Assembly (NCBI RefSeq): GCF_016888005.1 | Contig: NZ_JAFDVE010000022.1 | Span: 62,001-126,000 of the forward strand | DNA length: 64,000 nt | Reading direction: 5' to 3' | Source of the DNA: Phycicoccus sp. CSK15P-2 | GTDB lineage: Bacteria > Actinomycetota > Actinomycetes > Actinomycetales > Dermatophilaceae | Part shown: one piece after another, positions 1,769 to 15,852 of the stretch | Numbering within the stretch: the stretch's first letter is position 1 | Layout: each line of letters starts with the position of its first letter | Translations under genes and position numbers: made by a program | Notes under the pieces: model-generated | Told to the model about the DNA's origin: nothing | The model's database searches: none | The model's input: the letters and a program-made list of their open reading frames with translations, nothing else

Positions 1769-2538
1769 CCGTGCACCACCTTGAGCTCGCGCAGCACGGC
1801 GACCAGGCCCGGCGCCGCGGCCGTGCCCTCGCCGATGACGGTGACCTCGTTCGGCGGCGGCTCGGGGACCGTGAGCGCCTCGCGGCCGGCGCCGACCGGA
1901 GACCCGGTCCAGCCGAGCGTCTCTACCTCGGCCTTCTTCGCCTTCATCCGCCCCACGACGCTGGGGTACTTCGGGGACACACCGCCCTCGAGGACGGTGG
2001 CGACGGCAGGCAGCGCCACCTCGTAGACCTCGGTGCCCTCGGGACCCTCGCCGCGCAGCGTCGCGACGTCGCCGTCGACCTCGAGGGTCTGGACACCGGC
2101 GACGACCGGACGTCCGAGGAGGTAGGCGAGCCGCACCCCGACCTGGAAGTCGCCGGTGTCGGCGGCGTCGTTGCCGAGCAGGACGAGGCCGTACGTGCGG
2201 CCGGCCTCCTCGCGCACCCGCAGCGCCTCAGCGACCGCCGCCGCGACGTCCGCCGGGCCGAGGAGGTCGGGGTCGGCCTCGACGAGGATGCCGTCGGTCG
2301 CACCCACGGCGATCCCCGCACGGATCTGCTCGACGCTCTCGGCGGCCCCCACCGACAGCACGGTGACCGACCCGCCGGTGGACTCGGCCACCTGGACGGC
2401 GAGGGCGATCGCGGCCTCCTCGTGGGCGCTTGTCGTGTAGCCGGCGTACCGGCCGTCGACGCGCATGCCGTCCGGGGTCAGGACGACCTCGCCCGTGGGG
2501 TCGGGGACCCGCTTGACGCAGACGAGGACGTCGGTCAT
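1765..2538 (-). CDS. etfB: Electron transfer flavoprotein, beta subunit
   Basis: This is a 257-residue small subunit of ETF that binds AMP and docks on the alpha subunit. It begins MTDVLVCVKRVPDP, typical of EtfB. It carries a GNDAADTGDFQVG segment in mid-protein and a KAKKAEV region near residue 205, as in family members. The ATG at 2538 overlaps the stop of the upstream FAD-GcvT gene (ATGA at 2535-2538). The three genes FAD-GcvT, etfB and etfA therefore form a tightly coupled operon on the minus strand. A much longer open frame continues upstream of this start, but it only reads the dehydrogenase gene out of frame. Confidence 0.95.
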   Translation of the reverse strand: MTDVLVCVKRVPDPTGEVVLTPDGMRVDGRYAGYTTSAHEEAAIALAVQVAESTGGSVTVLSVGAAESVEQIRAGIAVGATDGILVEADPDLLGPADVAAAVAEALRVREEAGRTYGLVLLGNDAADTGDFQVGVRLAYLLGRPVVAGVQTLEVDGDVATLRGEGPEGTEVYEVALPAVATVLEGGVSPKYPSVVGRMKAKKAEVETLGWTGSPVGAGREALTVPEPPPNEVTVIGEGTAAAPGLVAVLRELKVVHG

Positions 2539-5060
2539 GCCCGGCCCCGGATGCGGTCGTTGGCCGGGTCGAACAGCGGCGTCGCGTCGACCGCGGCGAC
2601 GGTCACCGGGTAGAGCTCCTCCATGTACGACACGGCGAGCCCGGTGCCGACGACGGCCTGCTCCGGAGGCAGGAAGGCCATGAGGACGTGCTTGCCGAGG
2701 CTCGGCGCGGAGCCCGCGGTCGTCACGTACGGGTGCCGGCCGTGCCCGTCGGTCAGCGTGCCGCCCTCGCGGGTGAGGATCGGCTCGCCACCGAGCATGT
2801 AGCGCTTCACCCCGCTCGCCGAGGTGTGGTCGTCGACCGTCATCGAGCACAGGACGGCCTTCGGCGCCTCGCCCGCCTGCTCGACGACGGCGTCCTTGCC
2901 GATGAAGTCGGCGTCCTTCCACTTCGCCCGGGACATCCCGGTCTCCATCAGGGTGCGCTCGGTGTCGAGCTCGTAGCCGTAGGCGCGGTAGCCCTTCTCG
3001 ATGCGTCCGGTCGTGCCGTAGACGCCGATGCCGACCGGCACCATCCCGAGCGGCGTGCCGGCCTCGAGGAGCCGGTCCCACAGGGCCGCGCCCGCCTCCA
3101 TCGGCAGGTAGAGCTCCCAGCCGTACTCGCCGACGTACGAGATCCGCGAGGCGAGGACGGACAGCGCCCCGACCTCGATCTCGCGGCACGTGCCGAAGGG
3201 GAAGCCCTCGTGCGAGACGTCGGCGTCGGTGACGGACGCGAGGATCTCCTTCGCCTTCGGGCCCCACAGGCCGATCGTCGTCCAGCTCGAGGTGAGGTCG
3301 ACGACGACCGCGCCGCCGTCCTCGGGCATACGGTCCTCGAACCACTTCTTGTCGGCCATCCCGTGGGCGCCACCGGTGACGACCCGGAAGCGGTCGTGGG
3401 CCAGGCGCATGACGGTGAGGTCGGAGCGGAACCCTCCGCGTTCGTCGAGCACCGGGGTGTAGACGACCCGCCCGATCCGCACGTCGGCCTGCGCCACGAT
3501 GATGCGCTGGACGGCCTCGAGCGCCCTCGGCCCGACGACGTCGAAGACCGCGAACGCCGAGAGGTCGACGAGCCCGGCCGTCTCGCGCATCTGGAGGTGC
3601 TCGGCGTTGATGACGGGGGACCACCAGCGGGCGTCCCACTCGTGCTCGCGGGGCATCGTCGCCTCGGGCCCGAACTTCTCGACGAGCCCGGCGTTGCTCT
3701 CGTACCAGTGCGGGCGCTCCCACCCGGCGGCTTCGTAGAACACCGCGCGCAGGGCCTCCTGGGAGGCGTGCATCGGGGCCAGCCGGACGTTCCGGTTGCT
3801 GCCCCACTGCTCGCCGGGGTGGACGATGCCGTACGTCTTGTTGAAGGCCTCCGAGGTGCGCGCCCTGACGTGCGCGCGGGTGCGCTGGAACGGGTAGAAC
3901 CGGGCGATGTCGCTGTGGCCGAGATCGATCTCGGGGTTGCCGTGGGTCATCCACTCGGCGACGGCGCGGGCGGTGCCCGGGCCCTCCTTGATCCACACGG
4001 CGGCGCACGACCAGAGGCCCTTGACCTCGGGGGTCTCGCCGAGGACCGGGTAGCCGTCGGGGGTGAGCGAGAGCAGGCCGTTGATGGCGTAGCGGATCTC
4101 GGCCCGCTCGTCGCCGAGGAGCTCGGGCATGAGCTCGAGGGCCTGCTCGAGCTGCGGGTCGAAGTCGTCCTCGGTGAACGGCATCTCGGTGGGGGAGAGC
4201 TTCGCCTGCTCGATGGACGGGATGTCTTCCGGGTCCCACAGGATCGGGCGGTGGGCGTAGGAGCCGACCTCCATGTCCGAGCCGTGCTGGCGCTCGTAGC
4301 AGAAGGTGTCCATGTCGCGGATGATCGGGAAGGTGATCTCGCCGGGCCGCTCCGCGAGCACCTCGCAGGGCCCGACCGAGATCATCTGGTGCACCGCCGG
4401 GGTGAGCGGGATGCGGGCGCCTGCCATCCGGGCCAGCTTGGGGCTCCACACGCCGCAGGCGATGACGACGGTCTCGGCCTCGATCCGGCCCTGGTCGGTC
4501 TCGACGGCGCGGATCCGGCCGTCCACGACCTCCATCCCGAGGACCTCGACGTTGGGGACGGTCGTCAGCGCGCCCTTCTCGACGGCGCGCTCGCGCATGA
4601 TCGTGCCGGCCCGCAGGCTGTCGACGACGCCCACGGTGGGGAACCACGCGGCGCCGACGATGACGTCCTTGTCGAGGAAGGGGACCTTCTCGGCCACCTG
4701 CTCGGGGGTGACCATCTCGGCGGGGATTCCCCAGGCCTTGGCGCTGCTCATCCGGCGCCGCAGCTCCTCCATCCGCTCCTCGGTGCGGGCCACCTCGTAG
4801 CCGCCGGACTCGGTGAAGACGCCGAGCTCCTTGTACTGGCGCACCGAGTCGAGCGTGATGTCGGCGAACTCGCGCGAGTGGTCCACGGGGAAGATGAAGT
4901 TGCTCGCGTGGCCGGTGGAGCCACCCGGGTTGGGCAGGGGACCCTTGTCGATCTGGACGATGTCGGTCCAGCCCCGCTCGGCGAGGTGGTACGCGAGGGA
5001 GTTCCCGACGATTCCGGCGCCGATGACGACGCAGCGGGCGGAAGCGGGCAGAGCGGCCAT
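2535..5060 (-). CDS. FAD-dependent dimethylglycine/sarcosine dehydrogenase-like protein (DAO-GcvT fusion)
   Basis: This is an 841-residue two-domain enzyme. Residues 1 to about 400 form a D-amino-acid-oxidase-type FAD domain, with the dinucleotide motif VIGAGIVGNSLAYHL at about 12-26 and a GSTGHASN segment whose histidine matches the site of covalent flavin attachment in dimethylglycine dehydrogenases. The rest is a GcvT-like, tetrahydrofolate-binding domain that captures the released one-carbon unit as methylene-THF. Arthrobacter dimethylglycine oxidase is similar in size (about 830 residues), but here etfB and etfA follow with 4-bp overlaps, which favours a dehydrogenase that reduces ETF. 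The ATG at 5060 has an AAGGGA ribosome site. Candidate substrates are dimethylglycine and sarcosine, the products of betaine demethylation by the neighbouring MttB system. Confidence 0.85.
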   Translation of the reverse strand: MAALPASARCVVIGAGIVGNSLAYHLAERGWTDIVQIDKGPLPNPGGSTGHASNFIFPVDHSREFADITLDSVRQYKELGVFTESGGYEVARTEERMEELRRRMSSAKAWGIPAEMVTPEQVAEKVPFLDKDVIVGAAWFPTVGVVDSLRAGTIMRERAVEKGALTTVPNVEVLGMEVVDGRIRAVETDQGRIEAETVVIACGVWSPKLARMAGARIPLTPAVHQMISVGPCEVLAERPGEITFPIIRDMDTFCYERQHGSDMEVGSYAHRPILWDPEDIPSIEQAKLSPTEMPFTEDDFDPQLEQALELMPELLGDERAEIRYAINGLLSLTPDGYPVLGETPEVKGLWSCAAVWIKEGPGTARAVAEWMTHGNPEIDLGHSDIARFYPFQRTRAHVRARTSEAFNKTYGIVHPGEQWGSNRNVRLAPMHASQEALRAVFYEAAGWERPHWYESNAGLVEKFGPEATMPREHEWDARWWSPVINAEHLQMRETAGLVDLSAFAVFDVVGPRALEAVQRIIVAQADVRIGRVVYTPVLDERGGFRSDLTVMRLAHDRFRVVTGGAHGMADKKWFEDRMPEDGGAVVVDLTSSWTTIGLWGPKAKEILASVTDADVSHEGFPFGTCREIEVGALSVLASRISYVGEYGWELYLPMEAGAALWDRLLEAGTPLGMVPVGIGVYGTTGRIEKGYRAYGYELDTERTLMETGMSRAKWKDADFIGKDAVVEQAGEAPKAVLCSMTVDDHTSASGVKRYMLGGEPILTREGGTLTDGHGRHPYVTTAGSAPSLGKHVLMAFLPPEQAVVGTGLAVSYMEELYPVTVAAVDATPLFDPANDRIRGRA

Positions 5061-5092
5061 CTGGTGATCCCTTCGGTCGCGTCACTGGTGCG

Positions 5093-5122
5093 TATCGCGC
5101 AACTCGACGCTCATCGTGCAAC
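5093..5122 (-). promoter_or_regulatory. Direct-repeat operator upstream of the dehydrogenase-ETF operon
   Basis: Read on the minus strand, GTTGCACGATG (5122-5112) and GTTGCGCGATA (5103-5093) are direct repeats 19 bp apart, 33-62 bp upstream of the dehydrogenase start. The same GTTGCRCSAT element occurs twice at the start of the IclR gene just upstream (5985-6013). Two copies at each of two neighbouring promoters suggest a shared operator. That the IclR protein binds here is inference. Confidence 0.45.
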
Positions 5123-5204
5123 ACGTCTGCCCAGCATGACACGCCCGACCCCCGCTGCCAACCGCTGTCCGCGCGTCGTCTCGGACCGGTCGTGGTGGCC
5201 CGCC

Positions 5205-5987
5205 CTACCGGAGTGCGGGCTGGTGGGCCAGGTGCGCCGAGATCTCCCGCGTGGCCGCGAGCAGGAGCGGGACGATCTCCTCGACCCGCTGCGGGTTGAA
5301 GCGGAACGTCGGGCCGGAGACGCTGACGGAGGCCACGACGTCCCCGTGCTCGTCCCGCACCGGAGCGGCGATCGCGGTCAGCCCCACGTCGAGCTCGTCG
5401 GTGGCGAGGGCCCACCCTTGCTCGCGCACCCGCGCCAGCTCGGCGTCCAGGCGCGTGCGCTCGGTGATCGTCGCCGGGGTGTACGCGACGAGCTCGCCGA
5501 GCGTGCGGCCGAGCTCGGGCTCGACGAGCTCGCTCACGAGGACCTTGCCGTTGCTCGTCGCGTGGATCGGGATGTGCTGTCCGACCCAGTTGTACGTCGA
5601 GAGACTCGAGGCGCCGGCCACCTGGTCGACGTAGAGCGCCGCGCCACCGGAGAGCACCGCGAGGTTGACGGTCTCGCCGGTCTCGCCCGCGAGGCGGCGG
5701 ACGACCGGGCGCGCCTCCTGGGCCAGGTCGAGGCGGGCGTTGGTGGCTCCGGCGAGCTTGAGGATGCCGACGCCGAGCCGGTAGCGGCCGCGCTCCTCGA
5801 CCTGTTCGACGAGCCGGCGCCGCTCGAGGGCGGAGACGAGGCGGCTGGCGGTCGACTTGTGCACGCCCAGCTCGCGGGCCAGCTGGGTGACCCCGGCCTC
5901 ACCGTGCAGGGCGAGCAGCTCGAGGATCGTCACCGCCCGGTCGACGGACTGGACGGTGCTGCCGGCTTCACGATCCGTGGTGGGCAT
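5205..5987 (-). CDS. IclR-family transcriptional regulator (dehydrogenase-ETF operon)
   Basis: This is a 260-residue regulator with an amino-terminal winged helix (SVDRAVTILELL...GVTQLARELGVHKSTASRLVSALE, about residues 14-62) and an IclR effector-binding domain ending ISVSGPTFRFNPQRVEE-like (here SVSVSGPTFRF). It lies upstream of, and on the same strand as, the dehydrogenase-etfBA operon, separated by 144 bp. The ATG at 5987 has no Shine-Dalgarno sequence. A TACGGT box ends 6 nt upstream, so the mRNA is probably leaderless. Two GTTGCGCCAT repeats flank that box, which fits autoregulation. An effector such as a methylated glycine derivative is plausible but not shown. Confidence 0.88.
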   Translation of the reverse strand: MPTTDREAGSTVQSVDRAVTILELLALHGEAGVTQLARELGVHKSTASRLVSALERRRLVEQVEERGRYRLGVGILKLAGATNARLDLAQEARPVVRRLAGETGETVNLAVLSGGAALYVDQVAGASSLSTYNWVGQHIPIHATSNGKVLVSELVEPELGRTLGELVAYTPATITERTRLDAELARVREQGWALATDELDVGLTAIAAPVRDEHGDVVASVSVSGPTFRFNPQRVEEIVPLLLAATREISAHLAHQPALR

Positions 5988-6013
5988 GGCGCAACCGTAG
6001 CGAATGGCGCAAC
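5985..6013 (-). promoter_or_regulatory. iclR promoter with two GTTGCGCCAT repeats (leaderless start)
   Basis: On the minus strand GTTGCGCCATT (6013-6003) and GTTGCGCCATG (5995-5985) are near-identical direct repeats 18 bp apart. A TACGGT -10 box lies between them, and its last base is 6 nt before the ATG at 5987. The second repeat overlaps the start codon. The element matches the one at 5093-5122. Protein binding at the two copies would occlude the -10 region. Confidence 0.45.
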
Positions 6014-6142
6014 CTCGGCCGAGCGCCGTGGTCAGGGCAAGAGGAAGCCGATCCGGTCCAGCAGCCAGCGCCAGGCGGTGCGCACGTGTCGCATGGGCCC
6101 CATCGTGCCGTACCGAGGGCTGCGCGGGGCGCAGGACGGCGG

Positions 6143-6691
6143 TCAGCCGCCCCGGCGGTCGCGGCGGAGGAGCCCGTAGACCCAGGAGTCGGAGACCACT
6201 CCATCGACGACGCAGTCCTCGCGCAGGGTGCCCTCGCGGACGAAGCCCAGCTTCTCCAGCACCCGGGCCGACGCCGGGTTGCGGGTGTCGACCTCGGTCT
6301 GCACCCGGTTGAGGTCGAGGGTGCCGTAGGCCCAGGTCAGCAGCGCGCGCGACGACTCCGTGGCGAACCCCTGCCCCCACACGTCCTCGCGGAGGCAGAA
6401 CGTGATGCCTGCGCTGCGGAACCCCGGGTCCCAGTCGATGAGGCCGCACCAGCCGACGAACGTCCCGTCGGCCCGGCGCTCGACCGCGAGCCGGGCCCCG
6501 CCGCCCTCCTCGGCCAGCTGTCGGCATCCGGCGACGAAGCGGTCGGCGCGCTCTCGCTCGGCCCAGGGTGGGGCGTCCCAGTACCGCAGCACCCGGGCGT
6601 CGCTCATCAGCGCGAAGAGCGCGTCGGCGTCACCGTCCTCGACCGGGCGCAGCACCAGTCGGTCGGTGGTCAGGGTCGGCGTCGGGATCAT
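6143..6691 (-). CDS. GNAT-family N-acetyltransferase (RimJ/RimL-like)
   Basis: This is a 182-residue acetyltransferase that starts with TDRLVLRPVEDGDADALFAL, as RimJ/RimL-type proteins do. The acetyl-CoA-binding segment is REDVWGQGFATESSRALLTWAY, followed by NRVQTEVDTRNPASARVLEKLGF, the usual C-terminal helix-strand pair. The ATG at 6691 is preceded by an AGGG-containing ribosome site. It lies between the first iclR and mttB on the same strand, with gaps of 155 and 52 bp. The substrate is unknown and nothing ties it to the betaine genes beyond position. It could acetylate a ribosomal protein, a small amine or an antibiotic. Confidence 0.85.
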   Translation of the reverse strand: MIPTPTLTTDRLVLRPVEDGDADALFALMSDARVLRYWDAPPWAERERADRFVAGCRQLAEEGGGARLAVERRADGTFVGWCGLIDWDPGFRSAGITFCLREDVWGQGFATESSRALLTWAYGTLDLNRVQTEVDTRNPASARVLEKLGFVREGTLREDCVVDGVVSDSWVYGLLRRDRRGG

Positions 6692-6743
6692 GGCCCGACC
6701 CTGCCGAACCGGGGCGAGGGCCGCCAGCGGGTTTCCGGGGTTG

Positions 6744-8183
6744 TCAGTCTCCGAGCTCGGCGCGGCGGCGGACGACGTACTCCTCGAGCTCGGCGCGCAC
6801 GGCCTCGTCCAGGGGCGGCTGCTCGTACGCCTCGACGCGCGTCCGCCAGATCTCGGCGGCCCGGGCCGCGGTGTCCTTCGCCCCGTTCCGTACCCACCGC
6901 TCGTAGTTCTCCGACGAGCTGAGGAACGGCCGGTAGAAGCACGTGCGGAAGCGCTCCATCGTGTGCATCGAGCCGAGGAAGTGCCCGCCGTGCCCGACCT
7001 CCTGGTGGGCGTCGAATGCGAGCGAGCCCTCGTCGATCTCGAGCGGGGTGAACTCGTGCTGGAGCATCTCGACGATCTGGCAGTCGACGACGAACTTCTC
7101 GAACCCCGCGACGAGCCCGCCCTCGAGCCAGCCCGCGGAGTGCATGACCCAGTTGGCGCCCGCGAGGAAGGTCGGCATGAGGGTCATCAGCGCCTCGTAG
7201 CCCGCCTGGGCATCCGGCACCTGCGAGGACGTGAGCCCGCCGCCGGTACGGAACGGCAGCCCGAAGTGACGGGCGATCTGGCCGGTGCAGAGCAGCCCGA
7301 TGCCCGACTCGGGGGTCCCGAACATCGGGGAGCCCGACTGCATGTCGATGTTCGACAGGAACGACCCGAAGACCACCGGGCATCCCGGCCGGACGAGCTG
7401 GGCCAGCGCGATGCCGGACAGTGCCTCGGCGATCTGCTGGACGAGCGCTGCGGGGATGGTCACCGGGGACATCGCACCCATGAGGATGAACGGGGTCAGC
7501 ACGACCGGCTGGGCGGCCCCGGCGTACTCGAAGAGCGCGTCGAGCATCCGGTCGTCCCACCGCAGTGGTGAGTTGCAGTTGACGAGGCTGATCGATGCCG
7601 GGGTCGCCTCGATGGCCTCCCGGCCGCCGAAGAGGATCTCGGACATCGCGATGACGTCGCGCGCGTTCGTGCCGGAGACGACGTTGCCCATGTACACCTT
7701 GTCGGTGAGCGTCATGAGCGCGTACGTCATGTCGAGGTGGCGTGAGTCGAGCGGGGTGTCGTTGGGCTCGCAGACGACACCGCCGGCGGAGTCGAGCACC
7801 GCGAAGGACTGAGCGAGCCGGGCGAAGGTGCGGTAGTCCTCCATCGTCCCGTCGCGGCGCGTGTCACCCTCGCGGACGAACGGCGGGCCGTAGACGGCTC
7901 CGAACGCCATCGAGTCCCCGCCGAGGTGGATGCTGCGCTCCGGGTTGCGCGCCTGGACGTCGAACTCGCGCGGAGCCTTCGCCACCTGCTCGAGGACGAA
8001 CTCGGGGTCGAGGAAGACGGTGTTCTCCTCGACCCGCTGGCCGGCGGCCCGGAAGAGCTCGAGGGCCCGGTCGCTCATGAACTCGACGCCGATCTCGGTG
8101 ACGAGCCGCCGCCAGCCCGCGTCGAGGGCGGCCATGGCGTCGGCCGAGAGGATCTCGTAGCGCGGCATCCGGTTGGTGAACAT
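6744..8183 (-). CDS. MttB-family (trimethylamine methyltransferase-like) corrinoid methyltransferase, non-pyrrolysine
   Basis: This is a 479-residue member of the MttB superfamily, the usual length. These enzymes transfer a methyl group from a quaternary or tertiary amine to a cognate corrinoid protein. Family features include the opening LSADAMAALDAGWRRLVTEIG, the NCNSPLRWDD segment, GCPVVFGSFLSNIDMQSG and the closing H-G-G-H-FLGSMHTMERFR region. The frame is open throughout with no internal TAG, so it is a non-pyrrolysine homologue like glycine betaine (MtgB), proline betaine or carnitine methyltransferases. I chose ATG 8183 because GGAGGG lies 6 nt upstream; a GTG at 8231 gives 16 more residues without such support. 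It is divergent from the operon carrying the corrinoid protein. Glycine betaine is the likely substrate, from the dimethylglycine-type enzyme nearby. Confidence 0.85.
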   Translation of the reverse strand: MFTNRMPRYEILSADAMAALDAGWRRLVTEIGVEFMSDRALELFRAAGQRVEENTVFLDPEFVLEQVAKAPREFDVQARNPERSIHLGGDSMAFGAVYGPPFVREGDTRRDGTMEDYRTFARLAQSFAVLDSAGGVVCEPNDTPLDSRHLDMTYALMTLTDKVYMGNVVSGTNARDVIAMSEILFGGREAIEATPASISLVNCNSPLRWDDRMLDALFEYAGAAQPVVLTPFILMGAMSPVTIPAALVQQIAEALSGIALAQLVRPGCPVVFGSFLSNIDMQSGSPMFGTPESGIGLLCTGQIARHFGLPFRTGGGLTSSQVPDAQAGYEALMTLMPTFLAGANWVMHSAGWLEGGLVAGFEKFVVDCQIVEMLQHEFTPLEIDEGSLAFDAHQEVGHGGHFLGSMHTMERFRTCFYRPFLSSSENYERWVRNGAKDTAARAAEIWRTRVEAYEQPPLDEAVRAELEEYVVRRRAELGD

Positions 8184-8237
8184 GCGCGGCCCTCCGGGGG
8201 ACGAGACGTCGTTGACGGTGAGACGGCGCACATCCTA

Positions 8238-8276
8238 GCCTCATGATATGGGACGCTGAGTTCCATATCATGAGGC
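8238..8276. promoter_or_regulatory. Perfect 14-bp inverted repeat between mttB and iclR (operator)
   Basis: GCCTCATGATATGG at 8238-8251 is the exact reverse complement of CCATATCATGAGGC at 8263-8276, with an 11-bp spacer. The repeat lies in the 119-bp region between the divergent starts of the MttB gene (8183) and the IclR gene (8303). Position, symmetry and AT-rich arms in very GC-rich DNA point to an operator serving both promoters. The neighbouring IclR protein is the natural candidate to bind it. Confidence 0.7.
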
Positions 8277-8302
8277 AGCTCGAGACGACTCCGAGGAGCA
8301 CC

Positions 8303-9070
8303 GTGGGGACCCCACCTGCCGGGACCGGCACCCAGTCCGTCGACCGCGCGGCCGACCTCGTCCACCGCGTCGTGCGCGCGGACGGGCCGTTGACGTTCGG
8401 CGACCTCGCCGAGGCGTCCGGCCTGGCCCGGTCGACGACCTCGCGCCTGCTCGCCGCCCTCGAGCGGGCCGAGCTGCTCGCGCGGGACGAGGAGGGCGGG
8501 TGGGTCCCCGGCGGGCTGTTCGACCTCTACGCCACCCGCCGCACCGACGACGAGCTGCTCATCGAGACCTCGGCCGGCACGATGCACGCCCTCAACGAGC
8601 TGACCCGCGAGACCGTCAACCTCGGGGTGGCGCGTCGCGGCACCGTCGTCCAGATCCACCAGGTGGAGGCCGTCTTCTACCTCGGGTCGCGGGACTGGGT
8701 CGGCACCGACGTCCCCGCCCATTGCTCCGCGCTCGGCAAGGTCCTCTACGCCTTCGACGCCCTGCCGGCCCCCACCGGCCCCCTCGATCAGGTGACCGCG
8801 GACTCACCGGCGTCGGGCGAGGAGCTCGAGGCCCAGCTGCGCACCATCCGCGAGGACGGCTTCGCCGTGACCGTCGACGAGCTCGAGCCGGGGCTGACCG
8901 GCATCGGCGCGCCGGTCCGGCACCGGGGGACGGTCGTCGCCGCCCTCGGGGTCTCCGGGCCGACCTTCCGGCTCGCCGACGACGCGCGCACGACCGGCGC
9001 GCTCGTCGCCGCACACGCCCGGGCCGTCTCCGCCCGGCTCGACCACCATCCGGAGAAAGGTGCCGCATGA
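8303..9070 (+). CDS. IclR-family transcriptional regulator (corrinoid operon)
   Basis: This is a 255-residue IclR regulator with the winged helix SVDRAADLVHRVV...TFGDLAEASGLARSTTSRLLAALE (about residues 10-55) and an effector domain ending LGVSGPTFRLADDARTTGALV. I start it at GTG 8303, which has GAGGAG 4 nt upstream. An ATG at 8243 in the same frame would put the palindrome inside the gene. Its stop overlaps the ATG of the corrinoid-protein gene (ATGA at 9067-9070), so regulator and enzymes are cotranscribed and probably translationally coupled. It is a second IclR paralogue in the island and likely controls both mttB and its own operon. Confidence 0.88.
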   Translation: MGTPPAGTGTQSVDRAADLVHRVVRADGPLTFGDLAEASGLARSTTSRLLAALERAELLARDEEGGWVPGGLFDLYATRRTDDELLIETSAGTMHALNELTRETVNLGVARRGTVVQIHQVEAVFYLGSRDWVGTDVPAHCSALGKVLYAFDALPAPTGPLDQVTADSPASGEELEAQLRTIREDGFAVTVDELEPGLTGIGAPVRHRGTVVAALGVSGPTFRLADDARTTGALVAAHARAVSARLDHHPEKGAA

Positions 9071-9732
9071 CCCCCGACGAGATCCTCCAGGGGCTGTACG
9101 ACGAGACGCTCGTCGGCAACGGCCCCGCGGTGCTGGACCTGACCCACCAGGCGCTGTCCATGGACATGCTGCCCGGGACGCTCCTCTTCGACGCGCTCAT
9201 CCCGGCGCTCGAGGAGGTCGGCGCCCGGTTCGAGCGCGGCGACTTCTTCGTCCCCGAGATGCTCATCGCGGGCCGCGCGATGGCCGGCTCGATGGAGGTG
9301 CTGCGCCCCCTGCTCGCCGACACCGGCGTCGAGACCATCGGGAAGTTCCTCATGGGGACGGTCAAGGGCGACGTGCACGACATCGGCAAGAACCTCGTGA
9401 ACATCATGCTCGAGGGCGCCGGCTTCGAGGTCATCGACCTCGGCGTGCAGGTGGCCCCCGAGAAGTTCGTCGCCGCGATCGAGGAGCACCGGCCCGACAT
9501 CGTCGGGTTCTCGGCGTTCCTCACGACGACGATGCCGATGTTCAAGGCGAACCTCAACGCGCTCGAGAAGGCCGGGCTGCGCGACTCCGTCATCGTCATG
9601 GTCGGCGGCGCGCCCGTCACCCAGGAGTACGCCGACGCCGTGGGCGCCGACGGCTACGCGGCGGACGCCTCCGCCACGGTCAAGCGCGCCAAGGCCCTCC
9701 TGGAGGCGCGGCGCACGGCGGTGCCCGCATGA
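9067..9732 (+). CDS. Corrinoid (cobalamin-binding) methyltransferase carrier protein
   Basis: This is a 221-residue MtbC/MtgC-like protein. A methionine-synthase-type helical cap fills residues 1-90. A Rossmann B12 domain follows, with DVHDIGKNLV at about 102-111; His104 is the lower axial cobalt ligand of the DxHxxG motif. Further B12 motifs are SAFLTT at about 146-151 and VGGAPVT at about 179-185. It carries the methyl group as methyl-Co(III) between MttB and the pterin methyltransferase. Start ATG 9067 overlaps the iclR stop, and the next gene overlaps its stop (ATGA at 9729-9732). The sequence GGAGAAAGG upstream is its ribosome site. The length and domain order match carriers of one-carbon catabolic systems. 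Confidence 0.93.
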   Translation: MTPDEILQGLYDETLVGNGPAVLDLTHQALSMDMLPGTLLFDALIPALEEVGARFERGDFFVPEMLIAGRAMAGSMEVLRPLLADTGVETIGKFLMGTVKGDVHDIGKNLVNIMLEGAGFEVIDLGVQVAPEKFVAAIEEHRPDIVGFSAFLTTTMPMFKANLNALEKAGLRDSVIVMVGGAPVTQEYADAVGADGYAADASATVKRAKALLEARRTAVPA

Positions 9733-10619
9733 GCGCCCCGCTGCGGCACACCGTGCTGCGCTCGGCGACCCGCGAGGTCGTCATCGGGGCCGACCAGCCG
9801 TTCTGCGTCATCGGCGAGCGGATCAACCCCACCGGGCGCCCGGTCTTCCAGGCCGCGCTGCGCGAGGGGGACCTCTCGATCGTCGCCAAGGACGTCGCCG
9901 CGCAGGTCGCCGGCGGGGCGAACGTCCTCGACGTCAACATGGGCGTCCCGCTCACCGACGAGGCCGAGCTGCTCGTCAAGGCCGTGACGATGGTCCAGGA
10001 GCTCACCGACCTGCCGGTCTGCATCGACTCCTCGGTCGTCGAGGCGCTCGAGGCCGGGCTCGCCGCCTACCAGGGGCGCGCGCTCGTCAACTCCGTCACC
10101 GCCGAGGACGACCGGCTCGCCGCCGTCCTCCCGCTCGTCAAGAAGTACGACGCCGCCGTCGTGGCGCTGCCGAACGACGAGGACGAGATCCCGATGGAGG
10201 CCGAGAAGCGCCTCGCGCTGACCGAGAAGATCGTCCGGGTCGCCACCGAGGAGTACGGCATCGCGGTCGACGACATCGTCATCGACCCGCTCGCCATGCC
10301 GATCGGCGCCGACTCGACCGTCGGGCGCAGCACGCTCGAGACGATCCGGGGCATCCGCGAGCGCTGGGGCCTCAACACGACCTGCGGGGCGTCGAACGTC
10401 AGCTTCGGGATGCCGGGGCGGCACGCGATCAACGCGGCGTGGCTGCCGCTCGCGATGTCGGCCGGGATGACGAGCGCCATCATGGACGCCCGCACGCCGC
10501 ACGTCGTCGACGCCGTCCGCGCCGCCGACCTGCTGCTCGGCAACGACGAGTGGGGCATGTCGTGGATCGGGACGCACCGGGCCCGGCAGGCGGCCGAGGC
10601 CGCGGCCGGCACGGCGTGA
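9729..10619 (+). CDS. Methyltetrahydrofolate:corrinoid methyltransferase (MtgA/MetH pterin-domain type)
   Basis: This is a 296-residue TIM-barrel pterin-binding protein. The motifs CVIGERINPTGR at about residues 26-37, GGANVLDVNMGVP at about 63-75 and LPVCIDSS at about 97-104 match the pterin-binding domain of MetH and of MtgA/AcsE/MtvA-like enzymes; the NTTCGASNVSFGMPGR segment near residue 220 is also typical. It transfers a methyl group between corrinoid Co and tetrahydrofolate. In a catabolic setting the flow is from methyl-corrinoid to THF, giving methyl-THF. It overlaps both neighbours by 4 bp, so it is a core member of the operon. The protein has no homocysteine or B12 domain, so it is not MetH. 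Confidence 0.93.
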   Translation: MSAPLRHTVLRSATREVVIGADQPFCVIGERINPTGRPVFQAALREGDLSIVAKDVAAQVAGGANVLDVNMGVPLTDEAELLVKAVTMVQELTDLPVCIDSSVVEALEAGLAAYQGRALVNSVTAEDDRLAAVLPLVKKYDAAVVALPNDEDEIPMEAEKRLALTEKIVRVATEEYGIAVDDIVIDPLAMPIGADSTVGRSTLETIRGIRERWGLNTTCGASNVSFGMPGRHAINAAWLPLAMSAGMTSAIMDARTPHVVDAVRAADLLLGNDEWGMSWIGTHRARQAAEAAAGTA

Positions 10620-12592
10620 GCGAGACCCCCGGACCGGACCAGCCCTTCGGCGACGTCGTCGAGGGGCTGCGCCGGGAAGGGCTGCTCGAGCCGCCCGCCG
10701 CGCTGGTCCCGGACACCGGCGAGGAGGAGCACGAGGGCGTCGGGCGGGTCACCCTGTCCTTCAGCCCCGCAGACCGGGTCGTCCGCGTCCCGCCGGGGGT
10801 CTCGGTGTTCGACGCCGCGTCGTGGAACGGCATCGCCGTCGACTCCACGTGCGGTGGGCACGGCACGTGCCGCAAGTGCCGGGTCCGGCTCACCTCGGGA
10901 ACGGCGCAGGTGACCCGGCACGACGCCCGCACCTTCACGACCGAGCAGCTCGAGGACGGATGGCGCCTCGCCTGCCTGGTCCGGGCCACCTACGACCTCG
11001 GCGTCGAGGTACCACCCCTCGTCACCCGCCCGAAGGCGTCGACGGTCGGGGTGGGGCGACAGGTCATCCTGCGCCCCGCGGTGCAGAAGCGGTACGTCGA
11101 GCTCGACGAGCCGACCCTGGCCGACCAGCGAACCGACCTCGCCCGGTTGCGCGACGCCGTCGACGACCTCACCCTCGAGCCCGACCTGCACGCGCTGCGC
11201 CGGCTGCCGACGGTGCTGCGGCAGAGCGACTTCAAGGTGACCGCCGTCGTCGTCGACGAGGCCCTCGTCGACGTCGAGCCGGGCGACACGACCGGGCGCC
11301 GGCACGCCATCGCCTACGACCTCGGGACGACGACGGTCGTCGCCACCCTGCTCGACCTCGACACCGGGACGCCGGTCGCCGTCTCGTCCGTCCTCAACCG
11401 CCAGCAGCCGTTCGGTGGGGACGTCATCACCCGGATCAGCGCGACGATGATGGATCCCGAGGCGCTGCCCCGGCTCACCGCGCTGGCCCGCGAGACCCTC
11501 GTCGAGCTCGCCGCCGAGGTGTGCGCAGAGGGTGGGGTCGACCCCCTCGAGGTGTACGAGGTCGCGCTCGCCGGGAACGCGACGATGACCGCGCTGCTCC
11601 TCGGTGTCGACCCCGAGCCGCTCGGCGTCGCACCGTTCGTCCAGGCGAGCGCGACCTGGTCCGGGCTGCGCGCCTCGGACCTCGGCCTCGACCTCCATCC
11701 CGGGGCCCGGGCGGTGGTCTTCCCGGCGCTCGGGGCGTACGTGGGCGGCGACATCGTCGCGGGGATGCTCGCGAGCGGGCTCGACCGCGACAAGCGCGTG
11801 CGCCTCTTCGTCGACGTGGGGACGAACTGCGAGATCGCGCTCTCGGACGGCGAGCGCATCGTCACGACCGCCGCCCCGGCGGGCCCGGCGTTCGAGGGCG
11901 GGGCGATCCGCTGCGGGATGCGCGCCGCCGACGGTGCCGTCGAGGTCGTCCGCCTCGACCCGTCGGCGGACGACCCGGCCGCCGCGGTGGCGCTCGGGGT
12001 GATCGGGGACGTCGAGCCGCGCGGGCTGTGCGGCTCCGGGCTCGTCGATGCCGTCTCCGAGCTCGTCCGGGTCGGCCTGCTCGACGCGAGCGGACGGTTC
12101 GTCACCGCCGAGGTCGCGGCGGCCACGGCGCCGGCCCTGGCCGACCGGCTGACGACGGTCGGCGAGGGGGAGCGGGTGTTCGTCCTCCACCGCCCCGTCC
12201 CGGCCGCCACGGCCGAGGAGTCGGTCTACCTCTCCCAGCGCGACGTCCGTGAGCTGCAGTTCGCCAAGGCGGCGATCTCCACCGGATGGACCCTCCTCGT
12301 CGAGGAGCTCGGGTTGGACCCGACGGAGATCCAGCAGGTGCTCCTCGCCGGCTCCTTCGGCTCCTACCTGTCGCCGGCGTCGGCGGTGCGGATCGGGCTC
12401 GTCCCGACGCTCCCCGTCCTGCGGATCGTCTCGGCGGGGAACGTCGCGGGGGAGGGCGCGAAGATGGTCCTCCTGTCGGCCCGGGAGCGGGCCGGTGCCG
12501 ACGCGCTGCTCGAGGAGGTGCGGTATGTCGAGCTCTCCGACCGTCCCGACTTCAACCACCGGTTCGTCGACCAGCTCGCGTTCCCGGGCTGA
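10616..12592 (+). CDS. RACo-type ATP-dependent reductive activator of corrinoid proteins
   Basis: This 658-residue protein uses ATP and an electron donor to reduce inactive Co(II) corrinoid back to Co(I). A plant-type [2Fe-2S] ferredoxin domain lies at about residues 45-135, with Cys79, Cys85, Cys88 and Cys120 in C-x5-C-x2-C-x31-C spacing. Linker and middle domains follow. An ASKHA-like ATPase core begins at AYDLGTTTVVATLLDL (about residue 235) and continues with VDVGTNCEIAL and GLCGSGLVDAVSELV. This is the DUF4445 architecture. The GTG start overlaps the stop of the pterin methyltransferase (GTGA at 10616-10619). Its presence shows that the corrinoid system is expected to suffer oxidative inactivation. 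Confidence 0.93.
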   Translation: MSETPGPDQPFGDVVEGLRREGLLEPPAALVPDTGEEEHEGVGRVTLSFSPADRVVRVPPGVSVFDAASWNGIAVDSTCGGHGTCRKCRVRLTSGTAQVTRHDARTFTTEQLEDGWRLACLVRATYDLGVEVPPLVTRPKASTVGVGRQVILRPAVQKRYVELDEPTLADQRTDLARLRDAVDDLTLEPDLHALRRLPTVLRQSDFKVTAVVVDEALVDVEPGDTTGRRHAIAYDLGTTTVVATLLDLDTGTPVAVSSVLNRQQPFGGDVITRISATMMDPEALPRLTALARETLVELAAEVCAEGGVDPLEVYEVALAGNATMTALLLGVDPEPLGVAPFVQASATWSGLRASDLGLDLHPGARAVVFPALGAYVGGDIVAGMLASGLDRDKRVRLFVDVGTNCEIALSDGERIVTTAAPAGPAFEGGAIRCGMRAADGAVEVVRLDPSADDPAAAVALGVIGDVEPRGLCGSGLVDAVSELVRVGLLDASGRFVTAEVAAATAPALADRLTTVGEGERVFVLHRPVPAATAEESVYLSQRDVRELQFAKAAISTGWTLLVEELGLDPTEIQQVLLAGSFGSYLSPASAVRIGLVPTLPVLRIVSAGNVAGEGAKMVLLSARERAGADALLEEVRYVELSDRPDFNHRFVDQLAFPG

Positions 12593-13205
12593 GCGCACCG
12601 CCCTCGTCGCGTGCGGGGCGCTGGCCCAGCCGGCGCTCGACGCCGTCGCCGCGCACGGCTGGCCGCTCGATGTCCATCCGCTGCCACCGCTCCTGCACAA
12701 CCGCCCCGAGCGGATCGCCGGTGAGGTCGAGCGCCTCGTCGTCGCGCTGCGCGAGGAGTACGGGCGCGTCGTCGTCGGCTACGCGGACTGCGGGACGTAC
12801 GGCGCGCTCGACGCCGTGTGCGAGCGGCTCGAGGTGCAGCGGCTCCCAGGGCTGCACTGCTACGACCTCTTCGCCGGCCCGGCCGAGGTCGAGTCACTCG
12901 CGGACGACGAGCCCGGCACCTACCTGCTCACCGACTTCCTCGTGCGGTCGTTCTCCCGGACCGTCCTCCGCGAGCTCGGGCTCGACCGCCACCCCGAGCT
13001 GCGCGACGACTACTTCCGGCACTACACGCGAGTCGTCTGGCTCGTGCAGACCGACGACCCGGCCGAGCAGGCCGAGCTGCGGGGACTCGCGCAGGAGGCC
13101 GCGGACCGAGTCGGCCTGCCCCTGCAGGTGCGCGCGACCGGCGCCGGGGGCCTCGAGCGTGCGCTCCGCCACCTCGTCGCACCGCGGACGGCGCCTGAGG
13201 GGTGA
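12525..13205 (+). CDS. DUF1638 protein of the corrinoid operon
   Basis: This is a 226-residue DUF1638 protein. The domain starts at LVACGALAQPALDAVAAHGW (about residue 27) and contains HNRPERIAGEVERLV, VVGYADCGTYGALDAVCE and a GLHCYDLFAGP segment; the conserved Cys and His residues could bind metal. Its function is not established, but the family is repeatedly found beside corrinoid methyltransferase genes. I chose ATG 12525 because GAGGAGG lies 6 nt upstream and no other good start exists. This makes it overlap the RACo gene by 68 bp in another frame. The first 25 or so residues are Ser/Thr-rich and encoded in the overlap. It is the last gene of the plus-strand operon and converges on the homocysteine methyltransferase. 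Confidence 0.85.
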   Translation: MSSSPTVPTSTTGSSTSSRSRAERTALVACGALAQPALDAVAAHGWPLDVHPLPPLLHNRPERIAGEVERLVVALREEYGRVVVGYADCGTYGALDAVCERLEVQRLPGLHCYDLFAGPAEVESLADDEPGTYLLTDFLVRSFSRTVLRELGLDRHPELRDDYFRHYTRVVWLVQTDDPAEQAELRGLAQEAADRVGLPLQVRATGAGGLERALRHLVAPRTAPEG

Positions 13206-13212
13206 CCGAGGC

Positions 13213-14106
13213 TCAGCGGTCCCGCAGCGCGGTGGCGATGGCGCGGGTGTGGTCGGGACCGGAGCCGCAGCACGACCCGACGACGTCGATGCCGAGGTCC
13301 TGCAGCTCCACGGCGTGCTCGGCGAGGGCCTCCGGGCCGAGCGTGTAGGCGAACCGGTCGCCGTGGAGCTCCGGGAGGCCGGCGTTCGGCTGGGCGACGA
13401 GGAGGACCTCGCCGGAGCGGGCCGCCACGAGCTGGTCGGCGATGACGCGCATCTCGTCCGGGCCACGGCCGCAGTTGGCGCCGACCCCCTCGGCACCCTC
13501 GCCGACGAGGGCCTGCACGGCCTGTGCGGGCGAGACGCCCATCATCGTGCGCAGGTTGGTGTCGAAGGACAGGGTCGCGACGACCGGCAGGTCGGGCCCG
13601 ACCTCGCGCACGGCGGCCACGGCCGCGAGGGTCTCCTCGAGGTCGCTCATCGTCTCGACGAGGACGAGGTCGGCACCGCCGGCGGCCAGGCCGCGCACCT
13701 GCTCGGCGAAGATCGTCCGGGCGTCGTCCGGGGTCAGCGTGCCGAGCGGCTCGAGGAGCTCGCCGGTGGGGCCGATGTCGCCGGCGACGAGAATGCCGTG
13801 CCGGTCGGCCACTGCCCGGGCGAGCCGGGTGCCGGCCCGGGCGACCTCCTCGGCGCGCCCGGAGAGACCGTGCTGGGCGAGGCGGGGCTCGGTGGCCCCG
13901 AAGGTGTTGGCCGTGAGGATCGTGGCACCCGCTACCGCGTACTCCTCGTGCAGGCCGGTCACGGCGTCCGGGTTCGTGAGGTTCCACGACTCGCCGCACT
14001 CGCCGGGCGGGAGGCCCCGCTCTTGGAGCAGCCAGCCGTAGCCGCCGTCGAAGACCGCGGCGCGTCCGTCGAGCAGGGCGTGCAGCCGGTTCGTCATCGT
14101 CGTCAT
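13213..14106 (-). CDS. Homocysteine S-methyltransferase family protein (BHMT/MmuM type)
   Basis: This is a 297-residue zinc-dependent methyltransferase of the betaine- or S-methylmethionine-homocysteine methyltransferase family. The zinc ligands are visible as Cys212 in GANCG and Cys279/Cys280 in GSCCGSGPDH. It also has the family's VFDGGYGWLLQERG opening, TANTFGATEPRL and GDIGPTG motifs. A BHMT-like role would let the cell make methionine and dimethylglycine directly from betaine, which fits the island; S-methylmethionine is an alternative donor. Its ATG at 14106 overlaps the TGA of metF (ATGA at 14103-14106), so the two are one transcription unit that converges on the corrinoid operon. Confidence 0.88.
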   Translation of the reverse strand: MTTMTNRLHALLDGRAAVFDGGYGWLLQERGLPPGECGESWNLTNPDAVTGLHEEYAVAGATILTANTFGATEPRLAQHGLSGRAEEVARAGTRLARAVADRHGILVAGDIGPTGELLEPLGTLTPDDARTIFAEQVRGLAAGGADLVLVETMSDLEETLAAVAAVREVGPDLPVVATLSFDTNLRTMMGVSPAQAVQALVGEGAEGVGANCGRGPDEMRVIADQLVAARSGEVLLVAQPNAGLPELHGDRFAYTLGPEALAEHAVELQDLGIDVVGSCCGSGPDHTRAIATALRDR

Positions 14107-14969
14107 CCCAGCGGGCGGACCCGGGCCACGGCCGCCTCCTCGAGCATCCGCTCGCGCCAGGCCTCCATGACCTCGACCTGGTTGAAGGTGAAGACGTGCA
14201 GCCCCTCGATGCGCAGCGCCGGGTTGGCGGACAGTGCGGCGACCCGGCTGACGAACCGGTCGGTGGAGAACCCGGGAGCGGCGATCCGGGCGAACACCGA
14301 GCGCTGCTTGCGCAGGAAGCGCAGCGACTCACCGACGCCGATCTTGCCCGCCATGCCGAGCAGCTTGGTCCGCTCGACCGGCCCGGGGACCCCCACGAGG
14401 AGGGGGAGGGCGACGCCGCGGCGGCGGACCCGCTCGCACCACGTGCCGAGTCGCTCGGCGTCGAAGGTCATGTTCGACACGACGTGCGTCGCGTACTGCC
14501 GCTTGTCCCACATCGCCTGGACGGTGACGTCGTCGTCGATCGTGGGGTGCGACTCGGGGTACCCGGTGATCCCGACGTGGGTGAAGGGGTGGTCGAGCCG
14601 GGCGAGGTCGCGCAGGAGGTCGAGAGCGGCGGTGTACTCGCCGGCCGGCGGGTCGGCGTCCCCGCCGGGCACGAAGAGGTCGGCGACACCGGCCTCGGCG
14701 AGGCGCGCGACGATCTCGGCGAGCTCGCCGGGGCCGGTCACCATCCGGGCGGCCAGGTGCGGCACGACCCGGAAGCCGGCGGTTGCCAGGGCGCAGGAGG
14801 TCTCGAGCGTGGCCTCGAGACCCTTGCCGGGGGCGGCGGTGACCGTGACGGGCACGGAGGCGGGGACGTGGGCGACGACCTTCTCGGCGATCGTCGGGGT
14901 GGGCATGACCTCGTAGCGGGCCCCCTCGACGAGACGGGTCAGGGCCACGGTGGGTAGATCGTTGCTCAT
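14103..14969 (-). CDS. metF: Methylenetetrahydrofolate reductase family protein (MetF-like)
   Basis: This is a 288-residue flavoprotein of the MetF family, slightly short and divergent. The catalytic Glu region reads YEVMPTPT instead of the usual FEFFPPK. PHLAARMV replaces PHLTC-type sequence. The VPGGDADPPAGEY, GITGYPESHP and GLHVFTFNQV segments fit MetF (TFN near the C-terminus is characteristic). In this island it would oxidise methyl-THF made by the pterin methyltransferase to methylene-THF, the reverse of biosynthesis. The divergence may mark a catabolic subfamily. I chose ATG 14969, which has AGGG 9 nt upstream; an upstream ATG at 15068 adds 33 residues unlike the family. Two TACGCACC repeats sit just upstream. 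Confidence 0.82.
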   Translation of the reverse strand: MSNDLPTVALTRLVEGARYEVMPTPTIAEKVVAHVPASVPVTVTAAPGKGLEATLETSCALATAGFRVVPHLAARMVTGPGELAEIVARLAEAGVADLFVPGGDADPPAGEYTAALDLLRDLARLDHPFTHVGITGYPESHPTIDDDVTVQAMWDKRQYATHVVSNMTFDAERLGTWCERVRRRGVALPLLVGVPGPVERTKLLGMAGKIGVGESLRFLRKQRSVFARIAAPGFSTDRFVSRVAALSANPALRIEGLHVFTFNQVEVMEAWRERMLEEAAVARVRPLG

Positions 14970-15514: not shown

Positions 15515-15521
15515 CGTCCGG

Positions 15522-15788: not shown

Positions 15789-15852
15789 GCGTCAAGTGTC
15801 GATCGCTGCGCACGTATGCGTCCAATGAAAGTAGATCATACGTCATATGCGA

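What the first reader, a model, noticed from the sequence alone, without database searches (positions are those of the whole stretch)
2535..14969. Candidate complete aerobic corrinoid-dependent betaine demethylation island in an actinobacterium
Sequence shows an MttB-family methyltransferase, corrinoid carrier, pterin methyltransferase, RACo reactivator, DUF1638, homocysteine methyltransferase, MetF-like protein, a dimethylglycine-dehydrogenase-like FAD-GcvT fusion and its ETF, with two IclR regulators, within 12.4 kb. Such corrinoid systems are best known from anaerobes (for example MtgB in Desulfitobacterium). Here ndh and the other housekeeping genes suggest a respiratory aerobe. The inferred path is betaine to dimethylglycine by MttB, methyl to THF by MtgA, oxidation by MetF, then further demethylation by the FAD enzyme with electrons to ETF.
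Basis: partly seen in the sequence, partly recalled or inferred. Interest (0 to 1): 0.8.

Follow-up and report, generated by a model that had tools for sequence, protein, structure and literature searches.

The report
Betaine demethylation island in Phycicoccus-like bacterium
An actinobacterium carries a gene island that looks built to take up choline and betaine and strip off methyl groups with a vitamin-B12 methyltransferase; this kind of system was published in 2025 for other bacteria that breathe oxygen, and what is added here is its recurrence in related actinobacteria and a likely two-switch control circuit.

Summary
The window is from a Phycicoccus-like actinobacterium and encodes a non-pyrrolysine MttB-family enzyme, corrinoid carrier, pterin methyltransferase, RACo, DUF1638, homocysteine module, divergent MetF, a DMG oxidase/dehydrogenase-like FAD-GcvT fusion, ETF and two IclR regulators. 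Just outside, the same contig carries BetT, BetA, a BetB-like gene, serine dehydratase and PurU, pointing to glycine betaine. The core cassette recurs in 63 or 64 of 64 relatives' loci with enough DNA. It is, however, the aerobic MtgBCDE system published in 2025 (PMC12478193): a new member of a known kind. Two points go beyond what I found in print. (1) This genome keeps a full MetH and only 9 of 64 cassettes carry the homocysteine module, so demethylation is probably a catabolic route, not the methionine synthase. (2) Two conserved operators: a palindrome between mtgB and iclR2 (75 of 80 loci) and a box before iclR1, metF2 and dmgdh (65 of 70, 55 of 59, 13 of 14). A tandem form of that box also precedes the unlinked formate-THF ligase gene, in the own genome and several relatives. 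Activity, substrate and regulator binding are inferred, not measured.

The parts
812..1768 (-). ETF alpha subunit
   Evidence: ETF_alpha 100.7 bits, ETF 77.9 bits
1765..2538 (-). ETF beta subunit; overlaps etfA and the DMG enzyme gene by 4 bases each
   Evidence: ETF domain 75 bits; start from the translation
2535..5060 (-). FAD-GcvT fusion, dimethylglycine oxidase/dehydrogenase-like
   Evidence: GCV_T 237.1, DAO 181.4 bits; nearest solved structure DMG oxidase 1pj5 528.9 bits, DMG dehydrogenase 4pab 280.3 bits
5087..5122 (-). second (IclR1-type) box in the dmgdh promoter
   Evidence: tandem form, 0 mismatches; palindrome form, 0 mismatches
5205..5987 (-). IclR regulator 1
   Evidence: IclR_C 154.1, HTH_IclR 53 bits
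5979..6013 (-). two IclR1-type boxes over and before the iclR1 start
   Evidence: 1-mismatch matches at 5979-5995 and 5997-6013
6143..6691 (-). GNAT acetyltransferase, found in 1 of 80 relatives' loci; probably a passenger
6744..8183 (-). mtgB-like: non-pyrrolysine MttB-family quaternary amine:corrinoid methyltransferase
   Evidence: MTTB 629.7 bits; 4yyc 428.9, 2qne 397, 9yce 395.7, pyrrolysine MttB 136.6 bits
8238..8276 (.). palindromic operator between mtgB and iclR2
   Evidence: arms of 17 nt, 94% complementary; only perfect site in the own genome; 75 of 80 mtgB upstreams
8270..9070 (+). IclR regulator 2 (start uncertain)
   Evidence: IclR_C 92.8 bits
9067..9732 (+). mtgC: corrinoid-binding protein
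   Evidence: B12-binding 105.8, B12-binding_2 53.3 bits; best NCBIfam MtgC_2 192.4 bits, below its cut-off 370
9729..10619 (+). mtgD: methyl-corrinoid:THF methyltransferase (pterin-binding)
   Evidence: Pterin_bind 93.9 bits; NF005719 methyl-THF:corrinoid/iron-sulfur protein methyltransferase 324.6 bits, cut-off 259
10616..12592 (+). RACo/RamA-like corrinoid reductive activator with N-terminal 2Fe-2S domain
   Evidence: RACo_C_ter 244.3, Raco_middle 177.2, Fer2 40.7 bits
12525..13205 (+). DUF1638 protein (ATG 12525; start uncertain)
   Evidence: DUF1638 81.1 bits; frame and ATG
13213..14106 (-). mtgE-like homocysteine S-methyltransferase module
   Evidence: S-methyl_trans 220.7 bits; best MetH 174.1 bits vs best BHMT 87.8 bits
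14103..14969 (-). metF2: divergent methylene-THF reductase family protein, probably run towards oxidation
   Evidence: MTHFR 41.1 bits for the longer ORF; nearest solved structure 7xg9 100.9 bits, next 33.5
14961..14996 (-). second (IclR1-type) box over and before the metF2 start
   Evidence: tandem form, 0 mismatches; palindrome form 2 mismatches

Best explanation
The island is a glycine betaine catabolic system of the MtgBCDE kind. Choline is taken up (BetT) and oxidised to glycine betaine (BetA, BetB-like). MtgB moves one methyl of betaine to Co(I) on MtgC, leaving dimethylglycine. MtgD moves it to THF. MetF2 oxidises methyl-THF to methylene-THF. The FAD-GcvT enzyme oxidises dimethylglycine, passing the carbon to THF and electrons to ETF; a second FAD-GcvT enzyme elsewhere in the genome may take another methyl. 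C1 units leave via serine (SdaA) and via formyl-THF and formate (formate-THF ligase, PurU). RACo with DUF1638 rereduces oxidised corrinoid. IclR2 acts at the mtgB/iclR2 operator; IclR1 acts at iclR1, dmgdh-etfBA, metF2-mtgE and the unlinked formate-THF ligase. Shown: genes, order, conservation, boxes. Inferred: every reaction, substrate, direction and regulator-site pairing.
For: Families of all parts. BetT 835.6 bits (cut-off 695), BetA 821.7 (732), SdaA 664.6 (345), PurU 338.8 (286) beside the window. In relatives betaine-type ABC transporter genes and BCCT (L008), and BCCT, aldehyde dehydrogenase and formate-THF ligase (L041) in the same stretch. Core cassette iclR2, mtgC, mtgD, RACo, DUF1638, metF2 each in 63 or 64 of 64 loci with 6.3 kb of DNA on that side. 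Four residues predicted by docking to bind betaine in MtgB (Y94, N199, R309, H345; passages of PMC6855144) correspond by my counting to Y99, N203, R313, H349, kept in 84 of 84 aligned MtgBs; I read other residues at all four in pyrrolysine MttB. Same gene set in a Sinorhizobium replicon (mtgE, B, C, DUF1638, D, RACo at 32-53% identity), like the S. meliloti cluster described in PMC12478193. CbiC/CobH and formate-THF ligase present. Operators.
Against: No activity, growth or expression data; aerobic life of this host was not tested. The betB-like protein (556.1 bits) is below the BADH cut-off 668.6; MtgC is below both MtgC model cut-offs. F353 of the anaerobic MtgB is a glycine here, with a tryptophan four residues earlier, so the pocket differs. 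2qne and 9yce appear to be the same protein, so they are one yardstick, not two. No second-type box before the own betT, betA, betB, sdaA or purU genes. The genome-wide scan with the palindrome form alone is at chance (43 matches, 46 for the reversed pattern). A related Paracoccus cluster lies near carnitine 3-dehydrogenase, so other supply routes or substrates occur. A betaine monooxygenase (GbcAB) in this genome was not searched for.
Confidence: 0.82

Rival explanations
1. The MttB-family enzyme acts on another quaternary amine (carnitine, gamma-butyrobetaine, proline betaine or choline itself) and the choline/DMG genes nearby serve a separate betaine route.
For: The MttB superfamily covers several substrates in Eubacterium (stated in PMC12478193); a related cluster in Paracoccus methylovorus lies near carnitine 3-dehydrogenase; a pocket aromatic differs from the anaerobic MtgB.
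Against: One MttB gene in the own genome and one match in each of the 28 positive family genomes; choline-to-betaine genes and a DMG enzyme, which a betaine demethylase would feed, stand close by; dmgdh, metF2 and iclR1 share a box.
Confidence: 0.1
2. The locus is mainly a split methionine synthase (MtgC, D, E) with MtgB as a side activity.
For: mtgE-like gene in the window, closer to MetH homocysteine domains than to BHMT; the split methionine synthase of Phaeobacter uses the same modules (PMC5764234).
Against: Own genome has a full MetH: 1277-aa frame with homocysteine, pterin, B12 and activation domains; only 9 of 64 cassettes carry the homocysteine module; mtgE is joined to metF2 under the second box, not to the mtgCD operon.
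Confidence: 0.04
3. Betaine degradation by the monooxygenase GbcAB exists as well, and the corrinoid cassette is a minor or low-oxygen route.
For: GbcAB was not searched in this genome; oxygen dependence was not tested.
Against: PMC12478193 shows the role of the related set in R. pomeroyi by mutants; the cassette keeps its own operators in relatives (75 of 80; 65 of 70 and 55 of 59).
Confidence: 0.05

Closest known systems
MtgBCD(E) with RamA, DUF1638 and MetF2 of Ruegeria pomeroyi, and the co-located cluster of Sinorhizobium (PMC12478193; abstract, results and discussion read)
   Same: Same modules: MttB-family MtgB, split corrinoid protein, pterin methyltransferase, homocysteine module, RamA-like activator, DUF1638, second MetF, DMG genes, BCCT transporter, serine dehydratase.
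   Different: Actinobacterial host; core genes in one divergent cassette with two IclR regulators; full MetH kept (as in some groups in that paper, such as Hyphomicrobiales); homocysteine module mostly absent from the cassette (9 of 64).
MtgB/MtgC of Desulfitobacterium hafniense (2qne is its MtgB, PMC6855144 passages)
   Same: MtgB homologue, 397 bits; the predicted betaine-binding Y, N, R, H kept.
   Different: MtgC below both NCBIfam MtgC cut-offs; pocket F353 replaced; DMG enzyme and ETF nearby.
Split methionine synthase of Phaeobacter inhibens with RamA-like and DUF1638 proteins (PMC5764234, passages read)
   Same: Same modules and both reactivation genes.
   Different: Here MetH is intact, as in S. 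meliloti, a co-occurrence those authors called unexplained; a betaine role would explain it.
N,N-dimethylglycine oxidase 1pj5 (from Arthrobacter, recalled)
   Same: Whole-length FAD-GcvT homologue, 528.9 bits.
   Different: Gene overlaps ETF subunit genes, so probably a dehydrogenase with ETF as acceptor (inference).
Methyl-THF-oxidising MTHFR subfamily, Sphingobium SYK-6 (PMC13001107, one passage read)
   Same: metF2's nearest solved relative is 7xg9 (100.9 bits); that 7xg9 is the SYK-6 enzyme is recalled.
   Different: Methyl donor here is a corrinoid system, not an aromatic O-demethylase.

Membership tests
Aerobic MtgBCD(E) betaine demethylation system | PF06253 MtgB without in-frame stop (non-pyrrolysine) | tested here: met
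   629.4 bits, no stops
Aerobic MtgBCD(E) betaine demethylation system | Separate B12-binding MtgC and pterin-binding MtgD close to it | tested here: met
   64 and 63 of 64 relatives' loci
Aerobic MtgBCD(E) betaine demethylation system | RamA/RACo-like activator and DUF1638 | tested here: met
   64 and 63 of 64
Aerobic MtgBCD(E) betaine demethylation system | Second MetF (MetF2) | tested here: inconclusive
   Divergent MetF-like gene present, 63 of 64; the canonical MetF of this genome was not searched for, and direction of reaction cannot be tested here
Aerobic MtgBCD(E) betaine demethylation system | Homocysteine module MtgE giving a dual role in methionine synthesis | tested here: inconclusive
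   Present in the window, 41% identical to the Sinorhizobium one, but 9 of 64 at the locus and a full MetH in the genome
Aerobic MtgBCD(E) betaine demethylation system | MtgC and MtgD needed for growth on betaine | not testable with these tools
   needs mutants
Aerobic MtgBCD(E) betaine demethylation system | MtgC in the roseobacter-type clade near CmuA | tested here: inconclusive
   No tree made; among 30 of 133 plasmid records listed, 42-48% to four alphaproteobacterial carriers, 35% to a CmuA, 30-36% to MetH entries
Aerobic MtgBCD(E) betaine demethylation system | Host lives aerobically | not tested
   recalled for Phycicoccus only
Pyrrolysine trimethylamine methyltransferase MttB | TIGR02369 above cut-off, pyrrolysine codon | tested here: not met
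   283.6 of 525 bits, no in-frame stop
Betaine-homocysteine methyltransferase (BHMT) | Closer to BHMT than to the MetH homocysteine domain | tested here: not met
   MetH 174.1 bits vs BHMT 87.8; PRK07534 252.5 of 338. Residue-level betaine-site check not done
Dimethylglycine oxidase/dehydrogenase | DAO + FAO_M + GCV_T + GCV_T_C in one chain | tested here: met
   acceptor (O2 or ETF) not testable here

The most novel reading that the evidence does not exclude
In Nocardioidaceae and Intrasporangiaceae the corrinoid betaine demethylase is uncoupled from methionine synthesis and run as a catabolic C1 route under two separate IclR switches: IclR2 senses substrate at mtgB, while IclR1 senses a later intermediate and jointly controls DMG oxidation, methyl-THF oxidation and release of formate (formate-THF ligase in Phycicoccus, purU or purU-ligase in Nocardioides), even where the ligase gene is unlinked.
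Probability: 0.45. Interest if true: 0.5.

Novelty: new member of a known kind. Interest (0 to 1): 0.42.

Why it matters
It extends the 2025 system, shown in marine Proteobacteria, to many actinobacteria (331 confirmed stretches in the scan, the best 80 read here, mostly Nocardioides and Phycicoccus relatives). It would explain why some bacteria with a complete MetH keep a RamA-like activator and DUF1638, a point left open in PMC5764234, and it gives concrete operator sites and a regulon to test.

Tried and rejected
Rejected: pyrrolysine TMA methyltransferase (no in-frame stop, far below the TIGR02369 cut-off). Rejected: BHMT as the demethylase. Says nothing: the SoxG search found no match, but no control genome rang either. 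Upstream regions of the own betT, betA, betB, sdaA and purU hold no second-type box. The palindrome form of that box is at chance level as a bare pattern (window: 14 found, 10.24 expected; own genome: 43 found, 46 reversed), so it was used only with position and conservation. A PDB search with the DUF1638 profile gave 8 weak hits (best E 0.016, viral glycoprotein L), taken as chance. No tree of MtgB or MtgC was made. AlphaFold of DUF1638 could not be run.

Own errors, corrected: DUF1638 was first searched in a wrong reading frame ('47 of 80' and '0 families' there are void, and so are the DUF1638 lines) and redone in the right frame (66 of 80; 63 of 64 with enough DNA). The formate-THF ligase was first cut in a wrong frame and redone. 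iclR1 counts without an identity limit include cross-hits to iclR2; at 55% identity or more it is 70 of 80.
Full report
What is there. The window lies at C3:62001-126000 of a 3.9-Mb, 45-contig genome. Its nearest named relatives by MtgB are Phycicoccus strains and a Micrococcales MAG (92-93% identity); Phycicoccus is in Intrasporangiaceae in the NCBI taxonomy. From left to right: etfA, etfB, the FAD-GcvT fusion, iclR1, a GNAT gene and mtgB (all minus strand), then divergently iclR2, mtgC, mtgD, RACo and DUF1638 (plus; successive genes overlap), then mtgE-like and metF2 (minus). MtgC shows DVHDIG, which fits the DxHxxG cobalamin motif (motif recalled), and RACo has an N-terminal 2Fe-2S domain.

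Beyond the window. On the same contig, ending 106 bases before the window starts, is SdaA (664.6 bits, cut-off 345), and further out a methionine aminopeptidase, a betaine-aldehyde-dehydrogenase-like protein (556.1 bits, below the BADH cut-off of 668.6), choline dehydrogenase BetA (821.7, cut-off 732), choline transporter BetT (835.6, cut-off 695) and PurU (338.8, cut-off 286). A PD-(D/E)XK nuclease gene and others interrupt the series. In relatives I scanned 8 chosen ORFs from 3 loci: betaine-type ABC transporter genes and a BCCT in L008, formate-THF ligase, aldehyde dehydrogenase and a BCCT in L041, and one unrelated protein in L070. This makes glycine betaine the most likely substrate.

Conservation. 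The genome-contig scan gave 331 confirmed stretches, of which the best 80 were kept, so the set is biased to close relatives. Of these, 64 have at least 6.3 kb of DNA on the cassette side. In those 64 (tblastn, at least half length and 35% identity): mtgC 64, RACo 64, iclR2 63, mtgD 63, DUF1638 63, metF2 63, mtgE-like 9, dmgdh 13. Loci reach at most 10 kb beyond mtgB, so dmgdh further away would be missed. In the whole family, 28 of 186 genomes have MttB, 29 have RACo, 27 both. G101 has MttB only; G155 and G071 have RACo only. In G155 RACo lies at the contig's first bases, so mtgB may be cut off. G165 has only fragments of both. The unnamed-genome loci partly repeat the named ones (equal contig lengths), so the two sets are not independent.

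Substrate pocket. MtgB's solved relatives are 4yyc (428.9 bits), 2qne (397) and 9yce, named glycine betaine methyltransferase (395.7; by its printed letters the same protein as 2qne), against 136.6 for pyrrolysine MttB. Four residues predicted by docking to bind betaine (Y94, N199, R309, H345; PMC6855144, passages) correspond, by my counting on the printed alignment with an offset of 19, to Y99, N203, R313, H349, kept in 84 of 84 sequences (window, 80 loci, 3 plasmid-collection records). In pyrrolysine MttB I read V, L, Y and Y there. F353 is not kept: G in 83 of 84, with W (83) or F (1) four residues earlier. These residues mark the quaternary-amine type; they do not separate betaine from carnitine.

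Methionine. The genome has a 1277-aa frame with homocysteine, pterin-binding, B12-binding and activation domains, that is a full MetH, and two MetE-like matches of 55 and 40 bits. The homocysteine module in the window is closer to MetH domains (174 bits) than to BHMT (88 bits). So the published dual role is possible but not needed here.

C1 oxidation. metF2 is a divergent MTHFR (41 bits to Pfam) whose nearest solved structure, 7xg9, scores 100.9 bits against 33.5 for the next. That 7xg9 is the Sphingobium enzyme is recalled; PMC13001107 (one passage) says a subfamily, with SYK-6 as exemplar, prefers methyl-THF oxidation. A second FAD-GcvT gene lies at C5:83680-86118 (35% identity) and is closer to DMG dehydrogenase (435 bits) than to DMG oxidase (318); the window enzyme shows the reverse (280 vs 529). 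Which one takes sarcosine is open. A formate-THF ligase and a cobalamin biosynthesis gene are present.

First operator. Between mtgB and iclR2 lies a near-perfect palindrome (8238-8276). A pattern written after seeing it and its relatives is met with at most 3 substitutions in 75 of 80 mtgB upstream regions and in 3 of 5220 control windows of the same loci. The perfect match is the only one in the own genome; there are 2 further 3-mismatch sites, against 2 for the reversed pattern. The five misses are L021, L023, L034, L036 and L070; L070 is also the one of 64 loci without iclR2.

Second operator. The box GTTGCG-N5-CGCAAC (up to 2 substitutions) stands before iclR1 in 65 of 70, metF2 in 55 of 59 and dmgdh in 13 of 14 loci, against 0 of 71 for RACo, 0 of 9 for mtgE, 5 of 80 for mtgB and 258 of 6777 of all 220-base windows, which include the true sites. 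As a bare pattern in the own genome a related palindrome is at chance (43 matches, 46 reversed), but its four best places (0-1 mismatch) include the dmgdh site and two at iclR1, and one 2-mismatch place lies just upstream of the formate-THF ligase on another contig. A tandem pattern written from the dmgdh, metF2 and ligase sites has those three perfect matches in the own genome, three 1-mismatch ones elsewhere, and none reversed; being written from them, this is not independent. The more independent part: in the eight genus members with MttB or RACo the same search gave 48 matches (14 reversed). By my reading 8 are at metF2, 7 at dmgdh and 6 genomes have one at the ligase: G157, G158, G160, G161 and G163 with 82-85 bases between site and ligase match, as in the own genome (83), and G155 about 80 bases away but in the opposite orientation. 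G162's candidate lies at a contig end and G156 showed none at the ligase; about half of the 48 lie elsewhere. The three genus members without MttB and RACo had 1, 2 and 5 matches (0, 6 and 1 reversed). In the 80 named loci the ligase itself has the box in 1 of 19, but purU in 37 of 52; purU stands directly before the ligase in 17 of the 18 loci that hold both. Own betT, betA, betB, sdaA and purU have none. Part of the conservation is common descent; the contrast with RACo upstream regions argues for function. That IclR1 and IclR2 are the binders is inferred from neighbourhood.

What is known. PMC12478193 (abstract, results, discussion read) shows MtgC and MtgD are needed for both methionine synthesis and betaine use in R. 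pomeroyi, with RamA, DUF1638 and MetF2 more abundant on betaine and related compounds, describes the S. meliloti cluster, and assigns 5% of marine mtgC reads to Actinomycetota. I recovered such a cluster from a Sinorhizobium replicon and a plasmid one in Paracoccus methylovorus. PMC5764234 (passages) notes as unexplained that RamA-like and DUF1638 genes occur with an intact MetH in S. meliloti. My searches for MtgB in Actinobacteria, Nocardioides or Phycicoccus, and for IclR control of betaine demethylation, listed no paper on this beyond PMC12478193 (open-licence library only; one search listed one wetland metagenome paper that I did not open).

DUF1638. C10, C69, C92, H38 and H91 are invariant in 10 of 10 actinobacterial and alphaproteobacterial copies aligned, which suggests a metal or cofactor site; PMC5764234 makes no specific proposal for its function and the fold could not be predicted here.

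Noticed in passing
window 12525-13205 and alignments A1, A2: DUF1638 has five Cys/His residues (C10, H38, C69, H91, C92 counted from base 12585) invariant in 10 of 10 copies from two phyla; possible metal or cofactor site.
   Followed up: partly
L113 (G165:C8:109072-109498): One family genome has only the last 83 positions of MttB and a 60-position piece of RACo side by side on opposite strands, looking like a remnant of a deleted cassette.
   Followed up: no
L182 (Terrarubrum flagellatum plasmid, 10458-14038): A corrinoid protein, DUF1638 and a RACo-like protein annotated 'virulence factor' stand together with no MttB match in the 23 kb read: the substrate enzyme is something else or elsewhere.
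   Followed up: no
L114 (Paracoccus methylovorus plasmid, 2294-16440): An MtgBCD-RACo-DUF1638-MetF cluster lies near carnitine 3-dehydrogenase.
   Followed up: partly
G000:C5:83680-86118: Second FAD-GcvT fusion gene, closer to DMG dehydrogenase, outside the island.
   Followed up: partly
window 55857-60663: Oligopeptide-type ABC transporter genes (SBP_bac_5, permease, ATPase) in a stretch of lower G+C (0.66-0.71) than most of the window.
   Followed up: no
window 46964-51642: UPF0182 protein of unknown function, then a tRNA-Met gene and a pyridine nucleotide-disulphide oxidoreductase.
   Followed up: no
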